NCBI GenBank assembly: GCA_005405945.1 | Contig: BJHW01000001.1 | Coordinates: 3,038,001 to 3,102,000, forward strand | Direction: 5' to 3' | Source of the DNA: Streptomyces violaceusniger | GTDB lineage: Bacteria; Actinomycetota; Actinomycetes; Streptomycetales; Streptomycetaceae | Length of the DNA: 64,000 nucleotides | Shown: one piece after another, positions 218-23,222 of the stretch | Layout: the number at the start of each line of letters is the position of its first letter | How positions within the stretch are numbered: position 1 is the stretch's first letter | The notes under the pieces: model-generated | What the model saw: only the letters and a program-made list of their open reading frames with translations | What the model was told of the DNA's origin: nothing | Databases searched by the model: none | Position numbers and translations under genes: made by a program

Positions 218-1702
218 TCACGCAGGGGCCCGCGTGTCCTGGACGCCGCCTCCCCGGACCTGGTGCTCGGGACCGGTCCCGTCCGTGCCGCGCCTCCGGC
301 GCCCCAGGACTATGCCTCCGGCGAAGACGGCGACCACGGTGAGTTCGAGGACCAGCGCGATGGTGCCGGAGGCGGAGATCAGCGTGGTGAAGTTCTGCAG
401 TGCCAGCGCCGTGGCGCCCAGGAGCAGGACAATGGACGCCGACGGCGCAATCACCGTGTTCCACCGCCTGCGGTCGAGGCCCGTCCTGCGGAAGAACACG
501 ATGACCGACAGCGAGGTCAGCATGTAAAGGAGCATGAGCGCCAGCACTCCGACGCCCCCGCCCCAGGTCAGCAGTGTGAGCACCGGGTCCGCACCGGTCA
601 GCGCAAACGGGACCGTCATCGCGATCGCGATGACGGTCTGGACCGAGCTGGCCGTGTACGGGGCGCCCTGTCGGTTCGTGCGCGACAGCCGCCGGGGCAG
701 TACGCCGGATGTGCCGAGGGAGTGGAAGTAGCGGGTGATGCCGTTGTGGAAGGCCAGCACGCCAGCGAGCAGCGAGGTCGCGAGCAGCGCCTGCATGACG
801 TCGGTGGCCCAGCCGCCGAGGGTGTGCGTGACCGCGCCGAAGACCACCGCGGTGGCATCGCCCTTCTGCAGCGCGTCCAGCGCCACGCCCTGCACCTTGT
901 CCGGCCCGTAGAAGCTCACGAACATCCAGGAAACGAAGGCGAAGAAGACCGAGATCACGACGACGGAGAGGTAGGTGGCGCGGGGGATGGTGCGGGCCGG
1001 GTCCCTGGCCTCCCTGGCGTAGATGGCCGTGGACTCGAAGCCGAGGACGCAGGCGATCGCGAAGGTCACGGCAACCCCCGGCGCCCCGGAAAAGAAGGCC
1101 GAGGGCGAGAAGGACGCGCTGAAGGCCAGCCCCGCAGGGCCGCCGCCCGACAGAAGCTCGTGGACCGCGAACACCAGCAGCAGAGAGGTCTCGGCCACCA
1201 CCAGGACGGCCAGGAGCTTCGCCCCGAACTCGATGTTCAGCGATCCGAGGAGCTGCACGAGGAGGATGGTCGCCAATGCCCAGAACCACCAGGGCAGGTC
1301 GACCGAGGCGTACCGCTGGACCAGGCCCTCGACCACGACGCCGTAGAGGCCGTACATCCCTGCCTGCACGGCGCAGTAACACAGCACCGCCACCTGGGAG
1401 GCGCCGACTCCGAGCGGTCTGCCCAGGCCGTGGGAGATGTAGGCGTAGAAGGCACCCGCGTCGGTCACATGCCTGCTCATGGCGATGAACCCGACCGAGA
1501 ACAGGCCGATCATCACCCCGACCACCAGGTAGACGGCGGGTACGCCGGCCGCGTTGCCGAGGCCGAGCGGTACCGGCAGGGTTCCGGCGACACCCGTGAG
1601 CGGCGCCTGTGCGGAGAGGACGAAGAACAGGATCCCGGCCACCCCCACGGCTCCTTGCCTGAGGTGGGTGCGGTGGTCCGGGTCTGATGGCTGCTGGGTC
1701 AC
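218..1702 (-). CDS. APC-family amino acid/organic acid permease
   Basis: A 494-residue integral membrane protein of the amino acid-polyamine-organocation superfamily. The start is taken as the GTG at 1702 (VTQQPSDPDHRT), preceded by AGGGAG at good spacing; the frame is open further upstream but that part does not look like protein. About 12 hydrophobic segments are visible, beginning with VAGILFFVLSAQAPLTGVAG, a typical first APC helix with the unwound Gly-rich stretch. A conserved internal motif, GFESTAIYAREARDPARTIPRA, matches the APC loop that follows helix 6. The tail is charged and glycine-rich. It is divergent from the AraC regulator and next to aromatic-degradation genes, so it may import the substrate or a related acid. 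Substrate cannot be read from sequence. Confidence 0.85.
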   Translation of the reverse strand: MTQQPSDPDHRTHLRQGAVGVAGILFFVLSAQAPLTGVAGTLPVPLGLGNAAGVPAVYLVVGVMIGLFSVGFIAMSRHVTDAGAFYAYISHGLGRPLGVGASQVAVLCYCAVQAGMYGLYGVVVEGLVQRYASVDLPWWFWALATILLVQLLGSLNIEFGAKLLAVLVVAETSLLLVFAVHELLSGGGPAGLAFSASFSPSAFFSGAPGVAVTFAIACVLGFESTAIYAREARDPARTIPRATYLSVVVISVFFAFVSWMFVSFYGPDKVQGVALDALQKGDATAVVFGAVTHTLGGWATDVMQALLATSLLAGVLAFHNGITRYFHSLGTSGVLPRRLSRTNRQGAPYTASSVQTVIAIAMTVPFALTGADPVLTLLTWGGGVGVLALMLLYMLTSLSVIVFFRRTGLDRRRWNTVIAPSASIVLLLGATALALQNFTTLISASGTIALVLELTVVAVFAGGIVLGRRRRGTDGTGPEHQVRGGGVQDTRAPA

Positions 1703-2141
1703 GGGGACTCCCTGGGAAGTGCGGCAGAAGCCGGGGCGTGGCGCCTTCAGGGCGAGAGGCGGGCTCGGTGGACCGCCACCAGGCCCCATTGCGACGGGAT
1801 CTCTGCCCCGCCGCCTGTTGACGGCTGGGACGAGAAAACGCAGCGGAACCGAGGTCCGTTCGAGGGGCTGGGCCGTCGGCCTCGGTGGTCCGTCGGCCGG
1901 GAATCGTTTCCCAAACCTGGTGTGCAGTACTGTGCGCCCACGCCGGGCCCGGGAGGTGCGGTGGCGTGCACCCCTTCCCGCCATTCCATGCACGGCGTTA
2001 CGGTACAGCCTGAGAATTCACCTTCCCCTGGGTGACGAACACCTTTCCACCAGGTGTTACGCGAGGCAACATGCAGGAAGCCCGCGATGAATCCGCTCGG
2101 GCCGCCGTGACACAACAGACCGCTACCAGGCGGAGCGCACT
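1703..2141. promoter_or_regulatory. Divergent intergenic region, permease / AraC regulator
   Basis: A 439-base gap between two divergently transcribed genes, so it should carry both promoters and probably the AraC-family operator. The open frames in it have no recognisable product. GGCGGAG sits just before the regulator ATG. No palindrome or direct repeat pair could be singled out with confidence. Confidence 0.4.
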
Positions 2142-3104
2142 ATGAGAACGACCGTGACCACCGACTCCGTCGCCCAGACCGAACGCTTCGATCACTGGGC
2201 CCACGAGATGTCCAAGCTCTTCACCGGCCTCGACGCGCGGCCGATCGCACGGACTCCGTTCCACGGGCAGGCCGCCAGCGACGATCTGGGGCTGCTCCAC
2301 CTCAGTTCGATCAGCGCGGGACCACTGCGGGTGCGTCGCACCGCGCGCATGATCGCCCAGCACGAGGAGGACCACTACAAGGTCGCTCTCCAGACCTCGG
2401 GCATCTGCGCGATCGAGCAGGACGGGGTGTGCAGCACGCTGGGGCCCGGCGACATCGCGATCTGTGACACCTCGCGGCCGTACTCCTTCACGTACGACAA
2501 CGACTTCCGTACGGTGCTGATGCTGTTCCCCCGCCCGATGCTGCCCCTGCACCCCGACGCCCTCCGTGACCTCACCGCGCGCAGGATCAGCGCCGACGCG
2601 GGTGTCGCAGCCGTCGTGGGACCGTTCCTGCAGTCGCTCAGCGAGCAGATCCGTGACTGCGCGGACCCGACTGCCGGCAGCCTCGTGGACGGTGCGGTGT
2701 CCCTGGTCACGGCACTGGTCACGGAGAGCCTGGCCCGGTCCGCGCCGCAGCTTCCCCAGGACGCGATGATGCTCCGCATCCGTACCCACATCGAGAACCG
2801 GCTGTCCGACCCCGATCTCACACCGGACTCGATCGCCACGGCACACGGCATCTCACGCCGGTACCTCTTCAAGTTGTTCGCCGCACAGGACCTGACCGTC
2901 GCCGGCTGGATCCGCATGCGCCGACTGGAGCGCTGTGCCCGCGACCTCGCGAACGCCGCAGCCCCGGAACAGCCGATCAGCACGGTCGCCGCGCGGTGGG
3001 GACTGCTCGACTGCCGGCACTTCAGCCGTCTGTTCAAATCGGCGTACGGCGAGACACCCCGGGACTTCCGTCGCCGCGCGCTGGCCGGCCGCGAGGGTTC
3101 CTGA
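2142..3104 (+). CDS. AraC-family transcriptional regulator
   Basis: A 320-residue regulator. The N-terminal 190 residues resemble the AraC-binding-like ligand or cofactor domain found in regulators of aromatic catabolism (FeaR/AntR type), including a cupin-like stretch LGPGDIAICDTSRPYSF. The C-terminal 110 residues form the double helix-turn-helix DNA-binding domain: SIATAHGISRRYLFKLF is the first helix pair and ISTVAARWGLLDCRHFSRLF the second, followed by the usual GETPRDFRRRAL. It is divergent from the permease and next to the dioxygenase genes, so it is the obvious candidate activator for them; this is inferred from context. ATG start at 2142. Confidence 0.88.
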   Translation: MRTTVTTDSVAQTERFDHWAHEMSKLFTGLDARPIARTPFHGQAASDDLGLLHLSSISAGPLRVRRTARMIAQHEEDHYKVALQTSGICAIEQDGVCSTLGPGDIAICDTSRPYSFTYDNDFRTVLMLFPRPMLPLHPDALRDLTARRISADAGVAAVVGPFLQSLSEQIRDCADPTAGSLVDGAVSLVTALVTESLARSAPQLPQDAMMLRIRTHIENRLSDPDLTPDSIATAHGISRRYLFKLFAAQDLTVAGWIRMRRLERCARDLANAAAPEQPISTVAARWGLLDCRHFSRLFKSAYGETPRDFRRRALAGREGS

Positions 3105-3237
3105 CTGTCACGGGACCGCGACAACGCGTAGCGACCGAGCGCTGAGTAAGGCGTACTCTCCGCGCCCATGCCTGGCCAACCTGATGCAGCGGACCGGCAC
3201 GGACTGGGGCGCACGGTTCGTCCGCCGACAACGGCAA

Positions 3238-3265
3238 GGGCTCGGACGGCCAGCCGTCCGAGCCC
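3238..3265. terminator. Bidirectional terminator, perfect 12-bp stem
   Basis: A perfect inverted repeat, GGGCTCGGACGG at 3238-3249 against 3254-3265, with a four-base CCAG loop. It lies between two convergent genes, the AraC regulator (stop at 3104) and the SnoaL-like gene (stop at 3300), and so is positioned to stop transcription from both sides. Confidence 0.8.
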
Positions 3266-3299
3266 GGGGTACACACCGATATCGCGATGCCGCCCTGTG

Positions 3300-3857
3300 T
3301 CAGGTCCGCATCAGCACCGAAGCCGACGGGTGGCTCTCGGCGAAGTTCTCCGGCAGCGGCGTGACGAAGACGTTCTCCGTACGGGTCCGGGTGATCTTCC
3401 AGACGCCGTCGATCTTGCGGAAGGCGTTGTTGAGCCGACTCGAACGCAGCAGGGACGTCCCGTCCGAGAAGAGCCACGGCTGCATATGGATCCACTGACC
3501 GGTGGCCTCGTCACCGTTGACGTGGATCTGCTCCGAGGTGAGGTAGTGCGCGTTCAGCAGCAGCGCGGACTCGTGCTTCCCTCCCCAGAACTCCTGGAAG
3601 TGGCGCCGTATCGCGGCGGCGCCTTCGGCACGGCCGAACTGGTCGTCGTAGTACTCGCCCACACCCTCCCACACCGCATCCTCGGCGTAGAGCTCCATGA
3701 GCAGGTCGATGCGGTGGACGTCGTCCCGCACGCCGTGCTCGGGGCACGGTGTGTCGCACAGGAACATATAGCGCGCCTGAAGCCTGCGGATGTCGGCCTC
3801 GGCTTCCAGTACCTCGACGCGCTGCACCAGCGCGGCGATCGTGGTCTTGTCGGTCAT
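3300..3857 (-). CDS. SnoaL/NTF2-like domain protein
   Basis: A 185-residue protein of the NTF2-like fold. The start at 3857 is supported by AAGGAGT seven bases upstream. After an N-terminal coiled region (IAALVQRVEVLEAEADIRRLQARY) come the features of SnoaL_4-type domains: YAEDAVWEGVGEYYDDQFGRAEG, a helix RRHFQEFWGG, then strands ending in a run typical of ring-hydroxylating-dioxygenase beta-like and dehydratase-like proteins. It is the last gene of a leftward operon with flavin reductase, an unknown gene and maleylacetate reductase. Such proteins act as small hydrolases, isomerases or dehydratases, or only bind ligands. The reaction here is unknown. Confidence 0.75.
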   Translation of the reverse strand: MTDKTTIAALVQRVEVLEAEADIRRLQARYMFLCDTPCPEHGVRDDVHRIDLLMELYAEDAVWEGVGEYYDDQFGRAEGAAAIRRHFQEFWGGKHESALLLNAHYLTSEQIHVNGDEATGQWIHMQPWLFSDGTSLLRSSRLNNAFRKIDGVWKITRTRTENVFVTPLPENFAESHPSASVLMRT

Positions 3858-3910
3858 CGGGTCACTCCTTGGTTCGGCGCGGTTGGTTCGGCGCGGTTGG
3901 TTCGGCGCGG

Positions 3911-4962
3911 TCAGCGGGGTGACTCTCCTGTCCACGCCGCACGCAGCAGGGCGGTGAGACTGTCGCGGGTGAGCGCGGGGGCGCTCGAGGAGACGGCTGC
4001 GAGGATCGGTTCGACCGCCTCGGCGATCCCGTCCTCCGGCATTCCGCAGTCCCGCAGGGCCGTCGGCGCGTCGAGCCGCGCGTACAGCGCGGCCAGCCCC
4101 TCGACCGCGGTGTGAGCGGTGAGCGCTGACGCGATCCTGCGCTCCGCCTCGGGGGTGTGCGGGGCGTTCAGCGCCAGCACATGGGGAAGGACGACGGCGT
4201 GGGTCTGTGCGTGGGGAAGGTCGAACAGACCGCCGAGGACATGGCACATCTTGTGGTGCGGGCCCGAGCCGGCCGAGGCGAAGGCCACAGCCGCGAGGTA
4301 GGCGCCGTACAGCGTCTGCTCGTGGCTAGCCAGTCCGCCCGGGTCGGCTGTGACGGCGGGCAGTCCCTGACAAAGGCCGCGGATCGACTCCTCGGCCAGG
4401 GCGAGGTCGATCGGGTCGGCGTGGGGCCCCACATCGCGTCGACGCCGTGGGCGAGGGCGTTGAGTCCGCTGGTCACCGACAGTTCGACCGGCAGCGTGCG
4501 CAGGAGCGACGCGTCGTACACGATGGCCCGCGGGAGCACCGTGGGCTCGACGCCGGTCGTCTTGGTCGCTCCTCGGGTGACGCCCCAAACGTTCGTGGCC
4601 TCGGAGCCGGCGTAGGTGGTGGGTACGGCGACGATGGGCAGTCCTGTGGTGAGGGCGACTGCCTTCGCCAGCCCGGTCGCGGAGCCACCGCCGATGGACA
4701 CCAGGGCGTCGGCGCGACACCGCACCGCGGCATCGCGCGCCCGGTCGGCCACCTCGACGGGCACATGCCGCACGACCTCGTGGTGAACGTGGGCCACCGG
4801 CAGCGCGCCGGTGAGGGGGCCGGTAAGTGGCGACGACGACGGAGCGATGACCACCATGATGCGTTCGGCGCCGAGCCGGGCGGTCTCGTCGCCGATGGCG
4901 GCTGCCGCGTCGCCGGGGGCGAAGACGACCCGCTGTGGCAGCGTCTCGTGCACGAATCTCAT
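3911..4962 (-). CDS. Maleylacetate reductase (frameshifted as read)
   Basis: An iron-containing-alcohol-dehydrogenase-like reductase that would reduce maleylacetate to 3-oxoadipate, the last special step of hydroxyquinol and chlorocatechol pathways. The start at 4962 (MRFVHETLPQRVVFAPGD) follows GGGAGG. N-terminal NAD-binding signatures are GGGSATGLAKA and VPTTYAGSEATNVWGVT; the first metal-site His region is LNALAHGVDAMWGP. The rest lies in another frame: DPIDLALAEESIRGL, then HHKMCHVLGGLFDLPHAQTHAVVLPHV with the expected metal-binding histidines, ending at 3911. One missing base in the G4/C4 run at 4423-4426 explains the break exactly, and with it the protein has the family length of about 350 residues. 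It could be a pseudogene but is more likely an under-called homopolymer. Confidence 0.82.
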
Positions 4963-5063
4963 GGGGGCGGTCCCTCCCTGCGATCCTCCGGGACACACGA
5001 TGGGGCAGGACGGTGATCCTGGCCGTCCTCACGCCGGCTCCGAGTGGCCGCGGTCTCGCCGGT

Positions 5064-5347
5064 TCACGGCTCGTCCCAGGACGCGTCGGCCTCCCAGTAG
5101 TCCATGCCCCGGCACTGACCCCGTGGCGCCACTCGGAGGTGCGCCGCAGCCGGGGTTCGACACTGGCGGTGATCGCGTCGGCCGCGTCGGGTCCGTCGGC
5201 GGGGACCGACCAGTGGACCCAGTTCAACTCGCGCCCGCCGGCGTCGCGCGTGAACAGGTCCACATGCCGCCAGCCGTAGCCGAACGTGTCGTTGTAGCAG
5301 GTCAGGGTCATCCGGCAGTCGGCATCCGGTGTCCGCTCGCCGGCCAT
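5064..5347 (-). CDS. Unrecognised small protein of the aromatic operon (frameshifted as read)
   Basis: The start ATG at 5347 overlaps the flavin reductase stop by one base (TGATG), so translation is probably coupled. The readable protein is MAGERTPDADCRMTLTCY followed by NDTFGYGWRHVDLFTRDAGG and a short charged region. It then breaks at the C4 run 5107-5110; one more base gives a natural ending GMDYWEADASWDEP at 5064, about 95 residues in all. It is rich in Trp and Asp and has no signal peptide, membrane segment or recognised domain. Position inside a catabolic operon suggests a pathway-specific role, perhaps a small enzyme or accessory subunit. Confidence 0.5.
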
Positions 5348-5868
5348 CACGCGCCCAGCGGGGTATTGATCGGGTGGAACCGGCGCTGGAAGTAGACCAG
5401 GCCGCCACTGTCCTCACCGAGGATCACACGGTCCGCTTCGATGAAGAGGACCGAGTGGGAGCCATGCGCGGCGCTGCCGGTGATGTTCCCCACGATCGAC
5501 GCGGCCGAACCCGTGAGCACCGGCACTCCGGCGACCGAGTGGTCCCAACCGTCGCCGGTGCCGGAGAACCGCTCCTCGGGCGGCAATCCGCCCGCGAAGG
5601 CCAGCGCCACGTCCTGGTGCTCGGGACCCAGCACGTTGACGCAGACCCGCTCGTTGTCCCGCAGGATGTCGTGGCTGCGGCTGGACCGGTTGACACACAC
5701 CAGCATGGTCGGCGGACTGTCGGTGACGGAACACACCGCGCTCACCGTGATGCCGGCACGGCCACGGGGGCCGTCCGTCGTGACGATGTTGACACCTGCG
5801 GAGAGGTTCGCCATCGCGGCGCGGAATTCTCGCTGTGTCGGAGTGAGTTGCGTAATGTTCGGAGCCAC
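5347..5868 (-). CDS. Flavin reductase (HpaC-like)
   Basis: A 173-residue flavin reductase-like protein of the FMN-binding split-barrel fold. These use NAD(P)H to supply reduced flavin to a separate monooxygenase. The GTG start at 5868 follows AGGAGGAA. Family motifs are FRAAMANLSAGVNIVTT at the N-terminus, GITVSAVCSVTDSPPTMLVCVNRSS for the flavin-binding strand-loop, and the region around GSHSVLFIEADRVILG near the end. It is the first gene of the leftward operon and faces the dioxygenase genes across a divergent promoter region. No flavin-dependent monooxygenase partner is seen in the window, so it may serve one encoded elsewhere. Confidence 0.85.
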   Translation of the reverse strand: MAPNITQLTPTQREFRAAMANLSAGVNIVTTDGPRGRAGITVSAVCSVTDSPPTMLVCVNRSSRSHDILRDNERVCVNVLGPEHQDVALAFAGGLPPEERFSGTGDGWDHSVAGVPVLTGSAASIVGNITGSAAHGSHSVLFIEADRVILGEDSGGLVYFQRRFHPINTPLGA

Positions 5869-6169
5869 TGTTCCTCCTGCCGGGCCCTCGGGCTCCCGGG
5901 TGAGCCCCGGGCACTACCGAAAGTAGGACCGCGCCCCTCGACAGCGGTATCGAGACTTCCTCGGTCGCCGCTGAGGATTTCCCCTACGGCATCCGGCGGT
6001 CGAGCGGCGCTGCCGCCGACCGAGCCGGCGCCTGAAGAAATCCCCTACGCCCGCCGAGGCCATTCCCAATTGGCCCGCTGCTGTCGGCTCCTTAGCGTCG
6101 AAAGCGCCGACCGACGACAACCCGGGCTCCGCCGGGACGACCTCCGAACCGATCCAGGAGGCCTCTTCC
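5869..6169. promoter_or_regulatory. Divergent promoter region of the two aromatic operons
   Basis: About 300 bases between the flavin reductase start and the dioxygenase alpha-subunit start, on opposite strands. It should hold both promoters and an AraC-type operator. AGGAGG precedes the alpha-subunit ATG. No open frame here looks real. Confidence 0.5.
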
Positions 6170-7468
6170 ATGAACGCACCGTTCACCTCCGAGAACATCC
6201 ACGAACTCGCACCGCCCGATCTGGTGCAGGCCGATCGCGTGGCCGGCCGTATGTACACCGATCCCGAGATCTTCGAACTCGAGATGACGAAGATCTTCGA
6301 GCGCACCTGGGTGTGGGTCGCGCACGAGAGCGAACTGCCGAAGGCCGGCAGCTTCAAGTCGACGTTCGTCGGCCGCCAGCCCGTCATCGTGGCCAGGGAC
6401 CGCAAGGGCCGCGTCAACGCCCTTGTCAACCGCTGCCGTCACCGGGGCGCAAGCCTCTGCGAGCAGAAGACGGGACAGGTCAACGGCTTCACCTGCCCGT
6501 ACCATGCCTGGTCCTACGGACTCGACGGCGCGCTGCGCGGCATTCCCTACCCGGACGGCTACGAGGGCGTCATGGAGAAGGGGGAGATGGGGCTGAAGAA
6601 GCTCCGCACCGAGTCCTATGGCGGGATGGTCTTCGCGACGTTCGACGACGGCATCGAACCGCTGGAGGACTTCCTCGGCGATGTGAAGCTGTGGATCGAC
6701 CGCTTCATGAAGCAGGGCGGTGGTTACCCGCTCAAGGTGCTCGGCACCCATCAGTTCAGGTTCCGGGGCAACTGGAAGATCCAGTTGGAGAACACGACCG
6801 ACGGCTACCACTTCCCGATCGTGCACCGTTCCTGGATGGCCTCGGTCGACGCCGAGACCGCCGGCATGATGTCGTTCATGACCGACCCCGCGGCGGTCAC
6901 TCACAACCTCGGCAACGGGCACAGCGTCGCCCAGATGGTCCCCGAGCACTCCGACCTCGACATCGACGACGGCAGCGAGCCGCTCCAGCCCCGATTCGCC
7001 TCCCTGGTCACCGAGCTGAAGTCCGCCGGTCTCGGTGACACCGGGATCCGCAAGCTGGTCCGGGCGATGCACGGCACCGGTTTCAACCTCAACCTCTTCC
7101 CGAACGTGTCGATGTCGATCTCGTTCCTGCGGGTGCTGCGGCCGGTCTCGGTCGACGAGACCCTGATCGAACACGTGGCCCTCGGACCGGACGGGCCTGC
7201 CGACATCGTGGCTCCTGTCAACCGGGAACGGCTGCGCATCCACGAGCACTTCCAGGGCCCGTTCGGCTTCGGCACCCCCGACGATGCCGAGGGCTGGGAC
7301 CGGGTCCAGCGCGGTGCCCAGGGCGCGCCGGATATGCCGATCATGGTCAACCGCGGCCTGACCCGCGAGACCCCGAGCCCGGAGGGCTGGGCGACCTCCC
7401 ATGTCACCGACGAGACCGGCATGCGCGCGGCGTACGACAAGTGGAAGCGAATGATGAGCGATGACTGA
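6170..7468 (+). CDS. Rieske ring-hydroxylating dioxygenase, alpha subunit
   Basis: A 432-residue catalytic subunit that would add both atoms of O2 to an aromatic ring, giving a cis-dihydrodiol or catechol. The Rieske [2Fe-2S] site is C89-x-H91 with C109-x2-H112. The mononuclear iron region is NTTDGYHFPIVHRSW, with H214 and H219 as ligands and D211 as the usual electron bridge. Length and motifs match the benzoate/anthranilate/2-halobenzoate group (BenA/AntA/CbdA type) rather than naphthalene-type enzymes; this assignment is from memory of the families. It overlaps the beta-subunit gene by 8 bases. The exact substrate is unknown; an aromatic carboxylate is the best guess. Confidence 0.92.
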   Translation: MNAPFTSENIHELAPPDLVQADRVAGRMYTDPEIFELEMTKIFERTWVWVAHESELPKAGSFKSTFVGRQPVIVARDRKGRVNALVNRCRHRGASLCEQKTGQVNGFTCPYHAWSYGLDGALRGIPYPDGYEGVMEKGEMGLKKLRTESYGGMVFATFDDGIEPLEDFLGDVKLWIDRFMKQGGGYPLKVLGTHQFRFRGNWKIQLENTTDGYHFPIVHRSWMASVDAETAGMMSFMTDPAAVTHNLGNGHSVAQMVPEHSDLDIDDGSEPLQPRFASLVTELKSAGLGDTGIRKLVRAMHGTGFNLNLFPNVSMSISFLRVLRPVSVDETLIEHVALGPDGPADIVAPVNRERLRIHEHFQGPFGFGTPDDAEGWDRVQRGAQGAPDMPIMVNRGLTRETPSPEGWATSHVTDETGMRAAYDKWKRMMSDD

Positions 7469-7994
7469 CTCCCCGCAGACGGTCGGCTCCCGCACGGCCG
7501 GTTCCCCGATCCCGCAGCTGACCGACCCGCGCGTGATCCGGGCGGTCGAGCTGGTCTGGCAGGAGGCCGACCTGCTCGACCGCAAGGAATACCAGACCTG
7601 GCAGGAGCTCTACGCCGAGGACGCGTACTACGTCGTCCCGATCGACGCGGCGACCGAGGACTTCGCCGACACACTCAACATGGTGTACGACGACGCCCGG
7701 ATGCGGCGGATGCGCGTGACCCGGATGACCGAGGGCTACTCCATCGCCGCGGTCGACGCCGCCCGCACCGTCCGCACCGTCTCACGGTTCGTGCCGGTCG
7801 AGGTCCTCGCCGACGAGGTGACCCTGCGCTCGGCCCAGGTCGTGGTCGCCTACAAGCGGGGCAGGCACGACGTGTGGGCTGGCGAGGTCACCCACCGGAT
7901 CAGTCTGTCGGAGTCCGGCGACCGGATCGCCCTGAAGGTCGTGCGGCTCATCGACAGCGAGGACGCCGTACCCGCAGCGGGATTCCTGCTGTGA
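7461..7994 (+). CDS. Ring-hydroxylating dioxygenase, beta subunit
   Basis: A 177-residue small subunit of the dioxygenase, with an NTF2-like fold and a structural role in the alpha3-beta3 hexamer. Family features are EADLLDRKEYQTWQELYAED near the N-terminus, YYVVPIDAATEDF, the arginine-rich DDARMRRMRVTRMTEGYS, and a final strand ALKVVRLIDSEDAVPAAGFL. It starts inside the end of the alpha-subunit gene and its stop overlaps the start of the reductase gene (GTGA), so the three genes are translationally coupled. Confidence 0.9.
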   Translation: MTDSPQTVGSRTAGSPIPQLTDPRVIRAVELVWQEADLLDRKEYQTWQELYAEDAYYVVPIDAATEDFADTLNMVYDDARMRRMRVTRMTEGYSIAAVDAARTVRTVSRFVPVEVLADEVTLRSAQVVVAYKRGRHDVWAGEVTHRISLSESGDRIALKVVRLIDSEDAVPAAGFLL

Positions 7995-8944
7995 GCCTCC
8001 TCGTCCGGGTCGCCGAGGTCACCGACGAGACGCACCAGATCCGTACCCTTCGCCTGATCAGGGAGGACGGCGCCCCGTTCGGCCCGTACGAGGCCGGCGC
8101 GCACATCGATGTGACCGGACCGACCGGTGTGCTCCGGCAGTACTCACTGTGCGGCCCGCCGGACGACCCTGCGTCCCTGCTCATCGCGGTGAAACGGGAA
8201 CCTCGGTCGCGTGGCGGCTCCGCCGCGCTGCACCAGGTGGCCCCGGGAGACAGCCTGGAGATCGGTGAGCCCCGCAATCTGCTGTCGCTGGCCGAGGAAG
8301 CGGAGCGATACGTCCTCGTGGCCGGCGGCATCGGCATCACCCCATTGCTGAGCGTGGCCTACGCGCTCCACTCCCGGGGCGCGGAGTTCGAGCTGCACTA
8401 CTTCGCGCGTTCCCGACAGGAGGCGGCGTTCGTCGAGCTGCTGGAGACACGGTCCGAGTTCAGTGACCGGGTCCGTTTCCATCTCGGAGTACCACGCGGT
8501 GAGCAGCCCGAGCTGTTCGCCGCGATGGCGGCGGCGGCGACCCCGGCGTGCCACGTCTACACCTGCGGCCCGCAGGGCTTCATGGCGCGGGTCACCTCGG
8601 TCTTCACCCCCGTGGTCGGCGAGGATCAGGTGCATGTGGAGCACTTCGTGGCAGCTCAGGTCGACACCAGCTGCGACCATGCCTTCACCGTCGAACTCGA
8701 CACCGGTGAGGTGTTCGAGGTGCCGGCCGGCAAGTCGATCCTGGCGGTACTGGAAGAAGGCGGGATCGACGTCTTCAAGTCCTGCGAGGAGGGCATCTGC
8801 GGCTCCTGCGTCTCCGGAATTCTCGACGGGGTTGCCGACCACCGTGACAACTGTCTCTCCGCCGCCGACAAGGCGTCCGGTACGCAGATCGCCCTGTGTG
8901 TGTCCCGGGCCCGGTCCGACAAGCTGGTCATCGAGCTCTACTGA
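7991..8944 (+). CDS. Dioxygenase reductase, FNR-type with C-terminal [2Fe-2S] domain
   Basis: A 317-residue electron-transfer protein. The GTG start at 7991 overlaps the beta-subunit stop by four bases; an earlier in-frame start is unlikely. Domain order is flavin-binding barrel (LRQYSLCGPPDDP, the RxYS flavin motif), NADH-binding domain (VAGGIGITPLLSV, YTCGPQGFM), then a plant-type ferredoxin domain with CEEGICGSC and a fourth Cys in DNCLS. This order is that of phthalate dioxygenase reductase (FMN type, ferredoxin at the C-terminus), not of BenC, where the ferredoxin is N-terminal. So a BenAB-like oxygenase is paired with a phthalate-type reductase. Confidence 0.92.
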   Translation: MSLLVRVAEVTDETHQIRTLRLIREDGAPFGPYEAGAHIDVTGPTGVLRQYSLCGPPDDPASLLIAVKREPRSRGGSAALHQVAPGDSLEIGEPRNLLSLAEEAERYVLVAGGIGITPLLSVAYALHSRGAEFELHYFARSRQEAAFVELLETRSEFSDRVRFHLGVPRGEQPELFAAMAAAATPACHVYTCGPQGFMARVTSVFTPVVGEDQVHVEHFVAAQVDTSCDHAFTVELDTGEVFEVPAGKSILAVLEEGGIDVFKSCEEGICGSCVSGILDGVADHRDNCLSAADKASGTQIALCVSRARSDKLVIELY

Positions 8945-9589: not shown

Positions 9590-10999
9590 CTATCCCCGGC
9601 GCAGGCTCGCCAGGAAGCGCCAGAGCGCGGAGCGGGGCCGTTCCGGCTGCGCGGGCTCGGCCTCAGCGGAGGGTGCGGGTTCCGGATCCGAGGTAGGCGC
9701 GGGGGCCGGTGCCGCTGGTGTGGGTACGGCTGCCCCCGTAGCCGGGCGCCGCGGGGCCTGCCACTCCCGTATCTGGAACCGGACCAGCAGGGACTTCAGG
9801 CCGCGTACGTACGCCGATGAGCGCCAGGGCAACTCATCGACGGGCACGTCGAGTTCGAAGTCGCACCGGTCGAACAGCGTGCGCACCGCCGTGGAGACGA
9901 TCATGTCGGCGAGGTCCCGGCCGGGGCACTGATGCGGGCCGACGCCGAAGGCGAGATGGGCACGCGAACTCACCGCCCTCTCGTAGCTTCCGGAGGCCGC
10001 GAACATGGGGTCGTGGTGCGCGGCGGCGATCGAGGGCATGACCGCATCGCCCGCGGCCAGCCGGAAACCTCCCAACTCGGTGTCGGCCACGGGGAAGCGG
10101 GACGAGAGATTGACCCACGGAGGCGAGGCGATGTGTACGCGGTTGACCAGTTCCTCGGCGGGCCCGGCCATCAGACTGGACTTCCCCGCCTCCCCGGCCA
10201 CCACCTCCAGCAGGCTGTTCGCGATGGTGTAGCTGGTCATCTCCGACATGATGACGAGGACCGCGTAGAGCTCCAGGCCCACCTGCTCCACACTCAACCG
10301 GGAGTCGGCGGCGAGCATTCGGCTGGCCAGATCGTCGCCGGGGTGCTGCTTCTTGTACGCGGCCAGCTCGGTCGTCGCGGCCAGCAGCCGCCCCACGGCC
10401 GCGGCGGCGTCCGGGTCGACGTCCAGAATGCGCCACGCGTCCATGAAGACGTCGTCCCCCTGCTCGGCCGGGAAGCCGAACAGCCGGTTGATGACCATCA
10501 GCGTCAGTGGCCGCGCGAAGTGCGCGTTGAGGTCCACCACCCCGCTGTCATTGCCGTCCGTGAAGAACGTGATCAGCTCATCGGCGTGCCGGGCAACGGT
10601 GTTCGCCAGATCCCAGGACTGGGGCGCGAACGTGTCCTGGAACGGGGCGAGGGCCGCGTCCAGGATGGCGCGCGTGGCCTTGCGCTGCTCGTCGTCCTGC
10701 ATCAGCTGGAAACTGATCATGTAGTTGGGCAGTTGCGGCCAGTCGGACGGCACTCGACCCTCGCGCAGCCACCGCCAGTGCTTGGGGTCCTTCTTCCACA
10801 GGGTCTCGTCGCGCAGAACCTCCCGCACCTCACGGTAGCCGAGCACCATCCAGACTGGGACCCCGTAGAGATCGACGGGCGCCACCGGCCCGTACCGGCT
10901 CCGCAGGCGCGAGTAGACCGCCGCGGGCCGGGCCTCGAACTCCCGTGTCATCAGCGGCTCAACCGCCAGAGTCTCCAGGTCCGAAGGGGCGAATGCCAT
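9590..10999 (-). CDS. Cytochrome P450 with atypical K-helix (CYP157-like)
   Basis: A 469-residue P450; the ATG at 10999 follows AAGGAC. The heme-thiolate loop FGVGPHQCPGRDLA is intact. Two normally conserved places differ. The K-helix reads AEELVNRVH, so Arg is not three residues after Glu and the canonical ExxR is absent. The I-helix reads MSEMTSYTIANS instead of the usual AGxxT. Loss of ExxR is known in the CYP157 family, and the following ELGGFRLAAGD region fits that group. After the P450 fold comes an Ala/Pro/Glu-rich tail of about 60 residues ending in SALWRFLASLRRG, not usual for soluble bacterial P450s. No ferredoxin gene is adjacent. It converges with the dioxygenase operon and its substrate is unknown. 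Confidence 0.88.
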   Translation of the reverse strand: MAFAPSDLETLAVEPLMTREFEARPAAVYSRLRSRYGPVAPVDLYGVPVWMVLGYREVREVLRDETLWKKDPKHWRWLREGRVPSDWPQLPNYMISFQLMQDDEQRKATRAILDAALAPFQDTFAPQSWDLANTVARHADELITFFTDGNDSGVVDLNAHFARPLTLMVINRLFGFPAEQGDDVFMDAWRILDVDPDAAAAVGRLLAATTELAAYKKQHPGDDLASRMLAADSRLSVEQVGLELYAVLVIMSEMTSYTIANSLLEVVAGEAGKSSLMAGPAEELVNRVHIASPPWVNLSSRFPVADTELGGFRLAAGDAVMPSIAAAHHDPMFAASGSYERAVSSRAHLAFGVGPHQCPGRDLADMIVSTAVRTLFDRCDFELDVPVDELPWRSSAYVRGLKSLLVRFQIREWQAPRRPATGAAVPTPAAPAPAPTSDPEPAPSAEAEPAQPERPRSALWRFLASLRRG

Positions 11000-11529: not shown

Positions 11530-13073
11530 TAGTACTCCAGTTGCAGTTCGCTATTCCTGCTGGTCAGGAGTCTGTTTCTGAGTGTAGCGAGCTGGCGTGG
11601 CGTCATGTGGCGGAAGTTCGTGACCAGCGGTGTGTGATCGCTGTTGTTCTGATCGTGCAAGATGATGTACAGCCTGATGAGTGGGCGAGGGAGCTCGAGG
11701 AGGTGCTGCTGCGGGTCGGTCACCGGTTCGGCCGGGCTGATCTGCGGCGGCGGATGCGTGCCTACGTACACGGTCTGCTGGGTCCGGTGGGCAGGAAGAA
11801 TGGCTGGCAGCTGGCCGAGTACGTCGGTCACAGTTCCCCGGCCGGGCTCCAGCACCTTCTGAACCGAGCCCGGTGGGACGCTGACGAGATCCGCGACGAT
11901 GTACAGGCGTATGTCGCCGAGCGGCTTGGCGAGGACGACGGTGTCCTCGTGATCGACGAGACGGGCTTTCTCAAGAAGGGCGATACCTCGGCCGGGGTTC
12001 AGCGGCAGTATTCGGGTACGGCAGGCCGTACCGAGAACTGCCAGGTCGCGGTCTTCGCCGCCTATGCCTCGTCCCGGGGCAGGACGCTGGTGGACCGGGA
12101 GTTGTACCTGCCGAAGTCCTGGACGTCGGACCGGGAACGGTGCCGGGAGGCGAAGGTGCCCGACGGCCGCGGTTTCGCCACCAAGACCGAGCTGGCGCGG
12201 GTCCTGGTGGCCCGGGCACTGTCCTCGCCGCTGCCCATCTCCTGGGTGACCGCGGACGCGCTCTACGGCCAGGACTGGCACTTCCGTCACATGGTCGAGG
12301 AGGCCGGCCTCGGCTATGTCGTCGCGGTCCCGAAATCGCAGCAGGTCAAGTCGCTTGCCGGGTGCTGGCGCATCGACCAACTTGTCGGGGACGCCCCAGA
12401 TGAAGCCTGGGAGCGGCTGTCCTGCGGCGAGGGCGCCAAGGGCCCACGCGTCTACGACTGGGCCGCCGCCCAGCTTCCCGCCATCCCGTTCTTCGACGGC
12501 GGCGAGCCGTCCCACCGCAGGTGGGTCATGGCCCGCCGCAGCATCGCCCGCCCCGACGAGATCGCCTACTACCTCGCCTACGCTCCCACCGGCACGGCAG
12601 TCAGCCAGCTCGTGAAGGTGGCCGGCAGCCGCTGGTCCATCGAGTCCTGCTTCCAGAGCGCGAAGAACGAGTGCGGGCTGGACCAGTACGAAGTCCGTCG
12701 CTACGTCGGCTGGTACCGGCACATCACCCTGGCCATGCTCGCGCATGCCTTCCTCGCCGCCACGACCGCCCACGCACGAACGGCAAGGGGGGCTGGAGAA
12801 ACGGATCGCCCCTCGCCCCGCTCAGCCTGGCAGAAATCCGCAGGCTCATGGCAGCTTGCCGCCCCGAGACCGGCCATCACCAACGGCGCCGCACCGACCA
12901 GGCGCTGAGATGGTCCTCCTGGCGCCGCCGACACCAGGCCACCGCCAGACACTGCCACTACAAACGCCGCACTGCTGGTCACGAACTTCCGCCACATGAC
13001 GCCACGTCAGCTCGCTACAGCTCAGAAACAGACTCCTGACCAGCAGGAATAGCGAACTGCAACTGGAGTACTA
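11530..13073 (+). mobile_element. IS701-family insertion sequence with about 100-bp terminal inverted repeats
   Basis: The left end starting TAGTACTCCAGTTGCAG at 11530 and the reverse complement of the right end at 13073 match for about 100 bases. There is one 1-base gap and one substitution before similarity fades near 11629 and 12973. These are far longer than the usual IS701-family ends (about 20-40 bases). The transposase gene fills the interior. Direct target repeats could not be settled, because the flanking TTAG and CTAA are themselves complementary. Confidence 0.8.
11655..13039 (+). CDS. IS701-family transposase (frameshifted near its end)
   Basis: A DDE transposase of IS701 type. 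The frame is open from a TTG inside the terminal repeat, but the GTG at 11655 (VQDDVQPDEWARELEEVL) gives the family length. Motifs are LVIDETGFLKKGDTSAGVQRQYSG around the first catalytic Asp, WVTADALYGQD for the second, and [19 protein letters not shown] for the Glu region. In the last part the readable frame leaves the family pattern; one more C in the run 12809-12812 restores LAPLSLAEIRRLMAA and WSSWRRRHQATARHCHYKRR, which is how these proteins end. Confidence 0.85.
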
Positions 13074-17513: not shown

Positions 17514-20500
17514 CTATGGAGCCAAGACATCCAACAGATCATTCTTGTCTCGAGTGACCATAATGCCAGCTTGCTCAAGGCTCTTGATCACGCTTCCTCG
17601 CCCCTGCGGGAGGTAAACAATGACCGGATAGTCCGTCAGGCTCTGAGTCCTCAAAGCCTGCTTCAGCGCACCCTTACCCGAACCCGTCTTGACCTGAACC
17701 ACGGCGTTCCTGGTCACGATGTCGAAATCCGTGAGCGCTTGCCCGTCTGCGCCGACGATATCGACTCCCTGTGCTCGGACATGCCCCGGATAGCGTGCGT
17801 TGATGTCGTCAACCAGTTCGGGAACGAGGGGGTCGTCTCCCTTTCCGATCACATGCGTCGCACAACCGTTGCTGTTGTGAACCAGGACCGGATTCTGGCC
17901 CGCGAGCACATAGTACGTGTGGATGCCGCTGACGGTCAGGTCGTGGGTGCGCTGGCGTTGCGTGAAGTGACGGGCGTGCTTGACGGTGACGGTGCGGCCA
18001 TCCGAGGTACGCAGAGTCATCCCCGGCCTGAGGTCACCGGCTTTGACCCATGCGTGCTGGGACTGGACCCAGAAGGGGTGCGTTGTGGTTGCTATGAGGC
18101 CCGTTGAAGGTTCACCAGCGCTGTTGGTGACGGTGAGGTCAACGAAGTTCTTGTCGTCTTCGGTGACGATGGTGCCGGCGACTTTGCGTGTCGTGGTCTT
18201 GCCGGTATCGGGGTCGGTGACTTTTACCTTGTCCCCGGTCTTGATGTCCTCGATGGGTTTGGTGGAGCCGTCGGCGAGGAGGACTCCAGTGCCTGGGACA
18301 AAGCTGTGGCATGCGGTCTCTGATGTCCGCCCTGCTGGTTCCTCGGCTGGTTCCTTATTGCGGCCCCTCCAGGTCTCGACTCCTTCTTCCACCGCCTTTT
18401 TGGCGCCACGAGCGATGAGTTTGGCCTTGTTGTAGCCAGTCATGTCGATGGCAGCCTGGGTGCAGGGTCCCAGGTCCCACGTGGCGTAGCACGTTCCTAT
18501 GGCGGCAAGCGGGTTGAGTTCCTTGAAGCTGGTTTTTGCTACCTTGAGCCACCAGGGGTCGGGCAGGTTCTGTCGCTTCGTTATGTGGTCTTGAACCAGG
18601 TAATCGACGCGTGAGCCGTACCCGGTGGTGAGCTTGCCGTACTGGCAGTTGTAGCCACAGCGGTACTGGGCCCTCGCGGCCGCACCTGCGCTACTGCTTC
18701 CGCTGCTTCCGCCGCTGGGGTAGTGGTTTTCGGGTGGGGCGCCGTGGCCTGCGTTCCCACCGTTGGTCGGCATGCAGTGACCGTTCCCGGGGTCTTCGCA
18801 CAGTCCTGTCGGGTCGCTGAAGGTGAGGGGGTTGCTGTTGGCGTACGCGTATCCCTGCATCTGCTGGGTGTCGCCGGGTTCCATGACCGGGTCGACCGAG
18901 AGGAATCGCCCGGTGGTGGGGTCGTATTCGCGTGCCCCCAGGTGGGTGAAGCCGGTGGTTTTGGTGTCGTCGGTTCCGCCGACGAAGCCTTTGGTGCCGG
19001 GCCAGGCGCTGGGCTGCTGGCCGCGCACGTCGCCGAACGGCAGGGTGCGGCGCTGGGTGAGCTTCTGTGTGGCGGTGTCGATGGCGAGTTGTGCGGTGCC
19101 GTGGTGGTCGGCGAGGGTGAGGGAGACGGTGCCGTCGTCTTCCTGGACGGCCTGGTTACCGCCGCCCAGGTCGATGTAACGGGTGGCCTTCGGCGTGGTG
19201 GATCCCTTGGGCAGGGTGATCTCGGTGCTGCCGAGGTAGAGGGTGGTCTCGGTGGGGCCGCGGCCTATCAGGCGGTTGCCGTCGGCGTCGTAGAGGTATT
19301 CGGTGACCTTGTCGCTGCCGCCCTCGACCGGCTCGGTCACCTTGGCCAGGTGTCCCTCTACGTCCCATGCCAGCGTCCCGGTGTCGCCGCGGAGAGTGCG
19401 GGTGGTGGTGTTTCCGGCCTTGTCGTACCCGAAGGAGTCCTGTGAGGCGCCGTTGGGTCCGGTCGCCTCGACGGAGGTGAGGGTGTGCGGCTGGGCACCA
19501 CCCGGCTCGGGGTAGCCGTAGGTGCGCTTGGTGTCCTTCTTCGCGTCGCCTGTGGGGTCGTGGAGAGTCTCTGTACGGCGATTGCCGACCTGGTCGTAGG
19601 TGTAGGAGTGCCAGTACGCGGCCGGACCGCCCAGCACGCCGCCGCTCGGGGCGGCGGCGCAGTTGGTGTCGCCTTGGGTCCATGCCTCGGTCAGGCGCCG
19701 CAGGTAGTCGTAGGTGAAGCACTGGTTGTCGGTGCCGGAGCGGGAAACGTCCGACACGGACAGGACGTTGCCTGCTTCGTCGTAGCGCAGGCTGTTGAAT
19801 TGATCGACGCCTGCGACGTCCTGCCGGTCGACGCGGGCGGTGGCAAGGCGCTGGGTGCCCCACTCATAGGTGTTGGTGGTCCAGGTCTTCTTGCTGCCGT
19901 TGTTCGACAACTCGTATTGCAGTGGTTTGCCGGTGAGGCTGTAGTTGACGGTCGACTTCAGGCCCTCGCTGCCGTCGATCGCGACGGGGCGCAGGGTTTC
20001 ATCTTCATAGGTGAAGACGACCGTCGTTGCCGGCAGCGCTCCGGCCTTGGGGTAGCCAGTGCCTTCGACGAGGCCGGAGACCTTGTAGGAGGTCGTGGAC
20101 AGATAGGTCCCCTGCAGTGCTCCTTCGGAGGCGGGGATGGTGACGGAGGAGCGAAGCGGGCGGTACAGGCGGTCGTAGGCGACGACCTTGGAGGTGTATG
20201 CCTGACTTCCCTGGTAGCGGGTGGATTCAGCCAGGTATCCCTTGGCTTCGCGGACGGTGTCGTACACCCACTTCGCCCGCAGCTCACCGCCGGGTGAGTC
20301 CTTGTGGAGTTCGGTCCGGCGGCCGAGGCCGTCGTAGACATAGGCCAGGGTGGTGTCACGCGCGTCCGTTGTGGAGGTCAGCTGACCACGGTCGTCGTAA
20401 ACACTCGTGCTGGTGCCTTTGTCCGGATCAGTGGCTTTGGTAAGGCGGCCAAGCAGGTCGTAGGCGTAGGTCCAGCTGTTCTTGGCGGGGTCGGTGACCT

Positions 20501-22019: not shown

Positions 22020-23222
<1,203 letters not shown>

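What the first reader, a model, noticed from the sequence alone, without database searches (positions are those of the whole stretch)
218..8944. Aromatic module joining a BenAB-like oxygenase, phthalate-type reductase and maleylacetate reductase
Alpha and beta subunits resemble benzoate-type dioxygenases, but the reductase has its ferredoxin at the C-terminus as in phthalate dioxygenase reductase. Maleylacetate reductase plus a flavin reductase point to a hydroxyquinol or substituted-catechol route. No ring-cleavage dioxygenase and no cis-diol dehydrogenase is in the window. Two NTF2-fold proteins and an unknown 95-residue protein complete it. The combination may serve an uncommon substrate.
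Basis: partly seen in the sequence, partly recalled or inferred. Interest (0 to 1): 0.58.

Follow-up and report, generated by a model that had tools for sequence, protein, structure and literature searches.

The report
Half of a Streptomyces auxin-degradation locus
These genes are one half of a gene set that a Streptomyces probably uses to break down the plant hormone auxin (indole-3-acetic acid) to catechol; the other half lies just outside the window, and a small unknown protein plus an extra ring-breakdown enzyme are the interesting additions.

Summary
The genes are real, but the reading as an oxygenase module for an uncommon substrate is mostly wrong. [quoted passage not shown] The missing genes lie 5-12 kb left of the window: iacA, iacB, iacE, iacH, catB, catA (catechol 1,2-dioxygenase), catC. 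Classical Streptomyces operons read iacABCDEFGH-catBAC; here the left operon reads A-B-E-H-catBAC, and the absent C, D, F, G are the window genes. The 22-gene block also carries an amine oxidase, aldehyde dehydrogenase and permease, and recurs in Streptomyces sp. NBS 14/10 with different flanks. IacC has other closest relatives than IacA/B/E: a mosaic. Three genes (iacA, maleylacetate reductase, the small protein) are frameshifted, probably by assembly error (16 of 149 control genes split; 0 of 150 in reverse). Two extras are new to me: the small protein (94 aa in relatives, no known family) occurs in exactly the 9 of 392 genus genomes that hold IacC; and maleylacetate reductase lies beside hydroxyquinol 1,2-dioxygenase in 9 of 80 related loci, hinting at a branch for ring-hydroxylated auxins. 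No activity was tested.

The parts
218..1642 (-). APC-family amine/amino-acid permease, next to a copper amine oxidase that lies just left of the window (genome 3035975-3037915)
   Evidence: Pfam AA_permease, AA_permease_2; 91% orthologue in NBS 14/10
2142..3104 (+). AraC-family regulator of the block
   Evidence: Pfam AraC_binding_2, HTH_18; 91% orthologue
3300..3857 (-). IacI: SnoaL/NTF2-fold protein
   Evidence: Pfam SnoaL_4; 38% identical to the gene between iacB and iacC in A. baumannii, the place of iacI in Marinomonas
3911..4962 (-). Maleylacetate reductase family (iron-ADH) protein, frame changes near 4425 in this assembly
   Evidence: Two frames; intact 364-aa orthologue closest to PDB maleylacetate reductases 3jzd, 3w5s, 3hl0 and to 3iv7
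5064..5347 (-). Small unknown protein, constant companion of IacC in the genus; frame changes near 5108 in this assembly, 94 aa in relatives
   Evidence: No Pfam/NCBIfam match; 9 of 392 genomes, the same nine as IacC; 75 of 80 loci
5347..5868 (-). IacG: flavin reductase for the monooxygenase IacA (start may be 5814)
   Evidence: Pfam Flavin_Reduct; 48% and 51% to the counterparts in Caballeronia and Cupriavidus, weak and partial in A. baumannii
6170..7468 (+). IacC: Rieske oxygenase alpha subunit
   Evidence: Pfam Rieske, Ring_hydroxyl_A; 55-66% to IacC in three proteobacterial loci
7461..7994 (+). IacD: oxygenase beta subunit
   Evidence: Pfam Ring_hydroxyl_B; 32-54% to IacD in the same loci
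7991..8944 (+). IacF: oxygenase reductase, ferredoxin domain at the C-terminus
   Evidence: Pfam domains; 39-50% to IacF in the same loci

Best explanation
The stretch is the right half of a split, mosaic iac locus of a Streptomyces. Proposed flow: copper amine oxidase and aldehyde dehydrogenase turn tryptamine into indole-3-acetic acid (inferred). IacA, with reduced flavin from IacG, oxidises it, and IacE makes dioxindole-3-acetic acid (shown in other species). The Rieske oxygenase IacCD with its reductase IacF, with help from IacI, IacH and IacB, turns this into catechol (the need for iacC, and a part for iacCDF and possibly iacI, were shown in other species; the chemistry is unresolved). 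CatA, CatB and CatC lead to the beta-ketoadipate pathway. The 94-aa protein is a further, unnamed component in Actinobacteria. The maleylacetate reductase is an accessory kept from a hydroxyquinol module. The frameshifts are most likely assembly errors. Gene presence, order and homology are shown here; every catalytic role in this strain is inferred.
For: Gene-by-gene matches to three proteobacterial iac loci. Complementary halves: left operon A-B-E-H-catB-A-C lacks exactly C, D, F, G, which are the window genes (full operon). Own CatA passes the actinobacterial catechol 1,2-dioxygenase cut-off (471 against 404 bits), CatC its own (134 against 131). The 22-gene block recurs in NBS 14/10 at 82-96% with flanks that do not match at 65% or more. 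Among the 80 nearest loci fetched, iacA in 73, iacB 73, iacE 72, iacH 73, iacI 72 of 80 within about 10 kb. Amine oxidase passes the primary-amine oxidase cut-off (910 against 651).
Against: No activity, growth or expression data. iacA itself is frameshifted in this assembly. No MarR regulator in the block. The window-type module (C, D, F, H, I, 94-aa) also occurs in genomes in which no IacB was found, 2 of 14 searched (G204, G207), so it may serve other substrates there. CatB fails its cut-off (181 against 335); PcaD- and PcaF-like hits are below theirs. The aldehyde dehydrogenase meets no specific model.
Confidence: 0.88

Rival explanations
1. One reading: a BenAB-like dioxygenase with maleylacetate reductase serving a hydroxyquinol or substituted-catechol route for an uncommon substrate such as a resorcylate or halobenzoate.
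For: Maleylacetate reductase family is real; the genome has hydroxyquinol-dioxygenase-like genes; in 9 of 80 related loci the reductase sits beside one.
Against: Alpha fails the BenA and AntA cut-offs; the nearest loci are iac loci; catechol genes lie in the same block; no hydroxyquinol dioxygenase in the block.
Confidence: 0.04
2. The window module is a separate pathway for another indole-type substrate that happens to lie beside iacABEH-cat, and does not complete that operon.
For: Similar modules stand without iacB genome-wide in G204 and G207 and, in L043, L046 and L055, without iacB and iacE nearby; IacC has other closest relatives than IacA, IacB and IacE.
Against: The left operon has lost exactly C, D, F and G; the two parts are kept together in NBS 14/10 and iacB lies near the module in S. 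humidus (G201:C43); L071 combines both types in another order.
Confidence: 0.1
3. The locus is a decaying pseudogene cluster.
For: Frameshifts in iacA, the maleylacetate reductase and the small gene; the reductase gene is truncated in S. ureilyticus and short in L055.
Against: 3 of 22 block genes split, against 16 of 149 genes around dnaA of the same assembly and 0 of 150 in the reverse comparison: background error explains them.
Confidence: 0.1

Closest known systems
iac locus for indole-3-acetate to catechol (Pseudomonas putida 1290, Paraburkholderia phytofirmans, Caballeronia glathei, Acinetobacter baumannii)
   Same: All nine iacA-I functions plus catABC have a counterpart; catechol genes are linked to iac as in P. 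putida 1290 (PMC6624763, whole text)
   Different: Split in two parts of different ancestry; two-component, TetR and AraC regulators and no MarR; 94-aa protein, maleylacetate reductase, amine oxidase, permease and aldehyde dehydrogenase in the block
iac operon of Streptomyces sp. NBC_00564 (L105) and of genome G122
   Same: Same genes; own iacA, B, E, H and cat genes are closest to these and similar operons
   Different: There A-B-C-D-E-F-G-H is contiguous; own C, D, F, G, I are closer to loci of other genera
iad locus (Variovorax; indole-3-acetate to anthranilate)
   Same: Uses an IacCD-type oxygenase (PMC9613470, passages and section 9)
   Different: Lacks iacA and ends in anthranilate, whereas this block has iacA and catechol genes; iad sequences were not compared here
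Corynebacterium glutamicum iolT2-rhcM2D2 operon
   Same: A maleylacetate reductase with an intradiol dioxygenase, whose repressor responds to 1,2,4-trihydroxybenzene and indole (PMC7764795, passages)
   Different: The window block keeps only the reductase; no link to iac genes appears in the passages seen

Membership tests
iac (indole-3-acetate catabolism) locus | IacA monooxygenase and IacE dehydrogenase (initial steps) | tested here: met
   iacA 47-61% and iacE 47-65% to three proteobacterial loci, left of the window; iacA frameshifted in this assembly
iac (indole-3-acetate catabolism) locus | Adjacent IacC and IacD with reductase IacF | tested here: met
   6170-8944
iac (indole-3-acetate catabolism) locus | IacB, IacG, IacH, IacI | tested here: met
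   iacB 53-62%, IacI 36-38%, IacG 48-51% in two loci and weak in A. baumannii; amidase IacH only 30-32% to the proteobacterial ones but 63-76% to those beside iacC in G122, G180 and NBC_00564
iac (indole-3-acetate catabolism) locus | Linked MarR regulator IacR | tested here: not met
   Pfam/NCBIfam scans of the block's 22 genes show two-component, TetR and AraC regulators and no MarR. Not universal: LysR in P. xenovorans (PMC11676955), two-component system in some Pseudomonas (PMC11630574); passages only
iac (indole-3-acetate catabolism) locus | Conversion of indole-3-acetate to catechol | not testable with these tools
   Needs growth, mutants and metabolites
Benzoate (BenABC) or anthranilate (AntABC) dioxygenase | Alpha subunit above the curated family cut-off | tested here: not met
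   209 against 781 bits (BenA), 229 against 672 bits (AntA)
Phthalate-type (PDR/VanB) reductase | Ferredoxin domain at the C-terminus | tested here: met
   Fer2 at residues 237-307 of 317; homologues are annotated PDR/VanB family
Hydroxyquinol pathway | Maleylacetate reductase | tested here: met
   Family membership only, from the intact orthologue; own copy frameshifted
Hydroxyquinol pathway | Hydroxyquinol 1,2-dioxygenase in the same locus | tested here: not met
   None in the window or block; three like genes elsewhere in the genome

The most novel reading that the evidence does not exclude
Actinobacterial iac loci have a second exit. On ring-hydroxylated auxins such as 5-hydroxyindole-3-acetate (from serotonin by amine oxidase and aldehyde dehydrogenase) the same IacCDF oxygenase releases hydroxyquinol instead of catechol, which hydroxyquinol dioxygenase and the co-located maleylacetate reductase funnel to beta-ketoadipate; and the 94-aa protein is an essential, so far unnamed component of the unsolved step from dioxindole-3-acetate to catechol.
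Probability: 0.18. Interest if true: 0.68.

Novelty: new variant of a known kind. Interest (0 to 1): 0.45.

Why it matters
Bacterial auxin degradation shapes plant roots, and the step from dioxindole-3-acetate to catechol is still a gap (PMC7225977, passages). A small protein that tracks IacC genome by genome is a concrete candidate for a missing factor in Actinobacteria, and the recurring hydroxyquinol pair gives a testable reason to think that some of these loci handle more than plain indole-3-acetate. The case also shows how a window edge and an error-rich assembly can make a known pathway look like an orphan.

Tried and rejected
BenAB/AntAB and hydroxyquinol readings of the oxygenase were rejected on family cut-offs and context. 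Real pseudogenes were judged unlikely after the dnaA-region control; that comparison also left 23 partial matches (19 in reverse) that are neither full nor frameshift-split, and these were not counted as frameshifts.

Structure of the 94-aa protein: AlphaFold model of the NBS 14/10 copy, pLDDT 89.2, pTM 0.77, strands and one helix. Foldseek found no PDB match at E <= 0.001 (best 0.23); VIA-align best Z 5.3 over 79 residues at 4.2 A, within the range that the tool calls common. No function or fold family can be read from this, and the absence of a match proves nothing. A profile of 60 copies found no relative in the proteobacterial iac loci L102, L103, L106 (best E 2.6).

Phylum sample: the 94-aa profile hits 1 of 396 genomes (own), the IacC profile 2 of 396 (own and a distant one at 341 bits, G563); too few to test the link beyond the genus.

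A slip mended: in the IacA tree the leaf 'OWN' was the NBS 14/10 copy; one search repeats it with the own frame up to the frameshift, with the same outcome. The queries iacA, FeADH and u94 are likewise NBS 14/10 copies.

Literature: searches of the held library listed no paper whose title or abstract start links iac genes with hydroxyquinol or 5-hydroxyindole-acetate, or describes a Streptomyces iac locus; the lists of 66, 67, 86, 106 and 107 were cut (20 of 1,595, 15 of 191, 15 of 78, 12 of 31, 12 of 69), and most subscription papers are not held. The 94-aa protein has no name to search for. Actinobacteria as carriers of iac/iad-like loci are in print (PMC9613470, passages). In two Rhodococcus plant pathogens no iac homologues were found (PMC7002392, passages).
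Full report
WHAT IS THERE. The window is G000:C1:3038001-3102000 of an 11.74-Mb genome in 3 contigs. The genus is Streptomyces by inference: genome G391, reported as same genus, has its IacC hit at the same contig position and identity as the named Streptomyces ureilyticus locus L023. Genes in 218-8944: APC permease 218-1642 (-), AraC 2142-3104 (+), SnoaL protein 3300-3857 (-), maleylacetate-reductase family protein 3911-4962 (-), small protein 5064-5347 (-), flavin reductase 5347-5868 (-), Rieske alpha 6170-7468 (+), beta 7461-7994 (+), reductase 7991-8944 (+). The maleylacetate-reductase gene and the small gene each change frame, near 4425 and 5108.

WHAT LIES OUTSIDE. A search of the own genome for intradiol dioxygenases gave its best hit at C1:3026923-3027450, 10-11 kb left of the window. 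Gene calls there, in genome coordinates: aldehyde dehydrogenase 3025091-3026536 (+); then on the minus strand catC 3026621-3026899, catA 3026911-3027765, catB 3027795-3028898, amidase 3028895-3030112, SDR 3030146-3030928, iacB and the monooxygenase iacA within 3030925-3032520 (iacA frameshifted), PAS histidine kinase 3032614-3034098, LuxR-type response regulator 3034105-3034767, TetR 3034867-3035454, a putative membrane protein 3035491-3035982, copper amine oxidase 3035975-3037915. CatA scores 471 bits against the actinobacterial catechol 1,2-dioxygenase cut-off of 404; CatC 134 against 131; CatB only 181 against 335. The amine oxidase scores 910 against 651 for primary-amine oxidase and is closest in the PDB to phenylethylamine oxidase entries. 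The aldehyde dehydrogenase scores best, but below cut-off, with phenylacetaldehyde dehydrogenases (424 against 800). For the lower pathway, PcaD- and PcaF-like genes lie at C1:4.247-4.252 Mb beside two further intradiol hits, all three points below or outside specific cut-offs for PcaD (229 against 256) and PcaF (475 against 597).

IDENTITY: THE iac LOCUS. The alpha subunit fails the BenA and AntA models. A translated search of plasmid records found 49 with relatives at E <= 1e-60. In stretches from A. baumannii, Caballeronia and Cupriavidus the own proteins match one by one: alpha 55, 60, 66%; beta 32, 51, 54%; reductase 39, 48, 50%; iacA (N-part) 47, 55, 61%; iacB 57, 53, 62%; iacE 47, 61, 65%; SnoaL 38, 36, 38%; flavin reductase 48 and 51% in the last two and only 27% over half its length in A. 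baumannii; amidase 30-32%. The SnoaL gene sits between iacB and iacC in A. baumannii and (with the amidase) in Cupriavidus; Marinomonas iacI, called a polyketide cyclase, has the same place (PMC11373566, passages), so I take it as IacI. From papers: IacA makes 2-hydroxy- or 2-oxo-indole-acetate and IacE dioxindole-3-acetate; the conversion to catechol requires iacC, with iacCDF and possibly iacI implicated, and its intermediates are not known (PMC9613470, section 9; PMC7225977, passages). P. putida 1290 has catBCA upstream of iac (PMC6624763, whole text).

SPLIT AND MOSAIC. Genome G122 carries two copies of iacA-B-C-D-E-F-G-H; in one the cat genes follow as B-A-C, in the other catA was not found and catB is a remnant. 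Streptomyces sp. NBC_00564 has the complete iacABCDEFGH-catBAC. Here the left operon reads A-B-E-H-catB-A-C: C-D are missing between B and E, F-G between E and H, and these four are window genes. That complementarity is the strongest sign that both halves are one pathway. Twenty-two genes from aldehyde dehydrogenase to IacF recur in the same order in Streptomyces sp. NBS 14/10 at 82-96% amino-acid identity, while no gene of either flank matched at 65% or more within the stretches compared: a block that moves as a unit. NBS 14/10 and S. humidus have one further gene (315 aa) between AraC and IacI that the own block lacks. Integrase- or transposase-type genes lie about 1.9 kb beyond its left end (3022000-3023232) and 2.7 kb beyond its right end (window 11634-12908). 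In FastTree trees, own IacA, IacB and IacE fall in a clade of nine with G122 (both copies), L071, L095, L097, L105, NBS 14/10 and S. humidus (supports 1.0, 1.0, 0.996), while own IacC falls in a clade of 22 (0.94) that holds L071 but not G122, L095, L097 or L105. The pairwise table says the same: against L095, own iacA, B, E, H are 74-92% and own C, D, F, G 55-69%; against L025, own C, D, F are 61-82% and own A, B, E, H 51-62%.

THE 80 LOCI. With thresholds of my choosing, within about 10 kb and out of 80: iacD 80, iacF 75, 94-aa gene 75, iacA 73, iacB 73, iacH 73, iacE 72, iacI 72, kinase 68, response regulator 67, iacG 51, catA 24, amine oxidase 14, maleylacetate reductase 12, hydroxyquinol dioxygenase 10. 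64 of the 80 hold more than 20 kb; 62 of these have the 94-aa gene. The five loci without it are L073, L076, L081, L097, L100, three of them short. Of 15 amine oxidase genes called, 11 have an APC-like permease within two genes.

THE 94-AA PROTEIN. It has no Pfam or NCBIfam match. Of 392 genomes of the genus it occurs in 9 (E <= 1e-6), and IacC (E <= 1e-120) in 9, the same nine; G122 has two copies of each. If genomes were independent, two such sets of nine would coincide with probability 1.8e-18; they are not independent. G142, with an alpha subunit only 38% identical, is not among the genomes with the small protein. Gene calling gave 70 copies (nothing was called in L041 and L074): 65 of 70 have an iac or regulator gene within 120 bases on the same strand, iacH in 50, iacG in 37, the response regulator in 16; 30 of the 50 iacH pairs overlap by 4 bases. 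29 positions are invariant in the 60 copies aligned (of 75), among them C17, W26, H28, D30, H45 and W46. It was not found in three proteobacterial iac loci. I infer a pathway component of Actinobacteria, perhaps acting with the amidase IacH or the oxygenase. Its predicted fold matched nothing clearly.

THE MALEYLACETATE REDUCTASE. In 9 of the 12 loci that have it, an intradiol enzyme lies 9-70 bases away (L037, L039, L042, L044, L046, L080, L081, L086, L101; Gordonia, Leucobacter, Klenkia, Streptomyces, Corynebacterium). The L046 copy scores 462 bits to hydroxyquinol 1,2-dioxygenase 1tmx and 111 to a chlorocatechol dioxygenase; the other copies were assigned by 48-74% identity to it. L055 has the dioxygenase beside a short reductase piece. 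L022, L024 and L030 have the reductase without it, as in the window. L044, L086 and L101 hold both a CatA and the hydroxyquinol enzyme. The own genome holds three hydroxyquinol-dioxygenase-like genes (C1:92360, C2:1709741, C2:2349338), two with an adjacent reductase. NBS 14/10 has a 67% relative of the L046 enzyme on another contig, followed by P450 and what look like ferredoxin and ferredoxin-reductase genes (labels of the last two by eye), and its only reductase at E <= 1e-40 is the one in the block. So the reductase may still serve hydroxyquinol breakdown in trans. By my own chemical reasoning, oxygenation at the two ring-fusion carbons of a 5- or 6-hydroxylated indole acetate would give hydroxyquinol rather than catechol; that is the basis of the novel reading, and nothing here tests it. 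Against it: the reductase is truncated in S. ureilyticus, 68 of 80 loci lack it at the threshold used, and hydroxyquinol genes serve many other pathways.

FRAMESHIFTS. Three of 22 block genes (iacA, reductase, 94-aa) are split relative to intact orthologues in NBS 14/10. Around dnaA, 149 of 200 NBS 14/10 genes had a match of 65% or more in the own assembly: 110 full, 16 frameshift-split, 23 otherwise partial. In reverse, of 150: 131 full, 0 split, 19 partial. The own assembly thus carries many indels even there, and the block's three are in line with that.

Most details were read well from raw sequence. The substrate inference failed because the window cut the locus and because the reductase's family name pulled it towards hydroxyquinol. 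Its suggestion to look for a hydroxyquinol dioxygenase does find such genes, but unlinked.

VERDICT. A new variant of a known kind: a split, mosaic actinobacterial iac locus. That Actinobacteria carry iac- or iad-like loci is already in print (PMC9613470, passage). The parts worth a specialist's time are the 94-aa protein and the recurrent hydroxyquinol pair.

Noticed in passing
L039, L042, L043, L046, L048, L055: Loci with the window-type module (IacC, D, F, H, I, usually the 94-aa gene) but without the usual iacA-B-E beside it; in L039 and L048 a diverged set (IacA-like 23-24%, IacB 42-45%, IacE 45%) stands near, in L046 and L055 an IacA-like 46% protein.
   Followed up: partly
L102 about 18167-20062 and 21538-22965: In A. 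baumannii a copper amine oxidase (31%) and an aldehyde dehydrogenase (34%) also lie within 10 kb of iac genes, as in the own block.
   Followed up: no
L192 (G180:C2:10745001-10765000) and L190 (G199:C13:73000-92999): Hydroxyquinol dioxygenase genes close to those of iac loci sit beside P450-type genes, in L192 with a maleylacetate reductase and a VanB-type reductase: possibly another hydroxyquinol-forming route.
   Followed up: partly
G000:C1:5804001-6124000 (L127-L142): The own assembly has many frameshifted genes even around dnaA (16 of 149 comparable genes), so any apparent pseudogene in this window should be doubted.
   Followed up: yes
window 9590-10999 and 11634-12908: A P450 gene and a DDE-type transposase just right of the block; the P450 is not at the corresponding place in NBS 14/10.
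   Followed up: no
window 17514-21863: A 1449-aa minus-strand frame in a stretch of strong AT skew; not examined.
   Followed up: no
L019-L020 (G180): G180 has IacC, D, F, H, the 94-aa gene and IacI in one run and catBAC about 9 kb away, but no iacA or iacB match in the 40 kb read.
   Followed up: no
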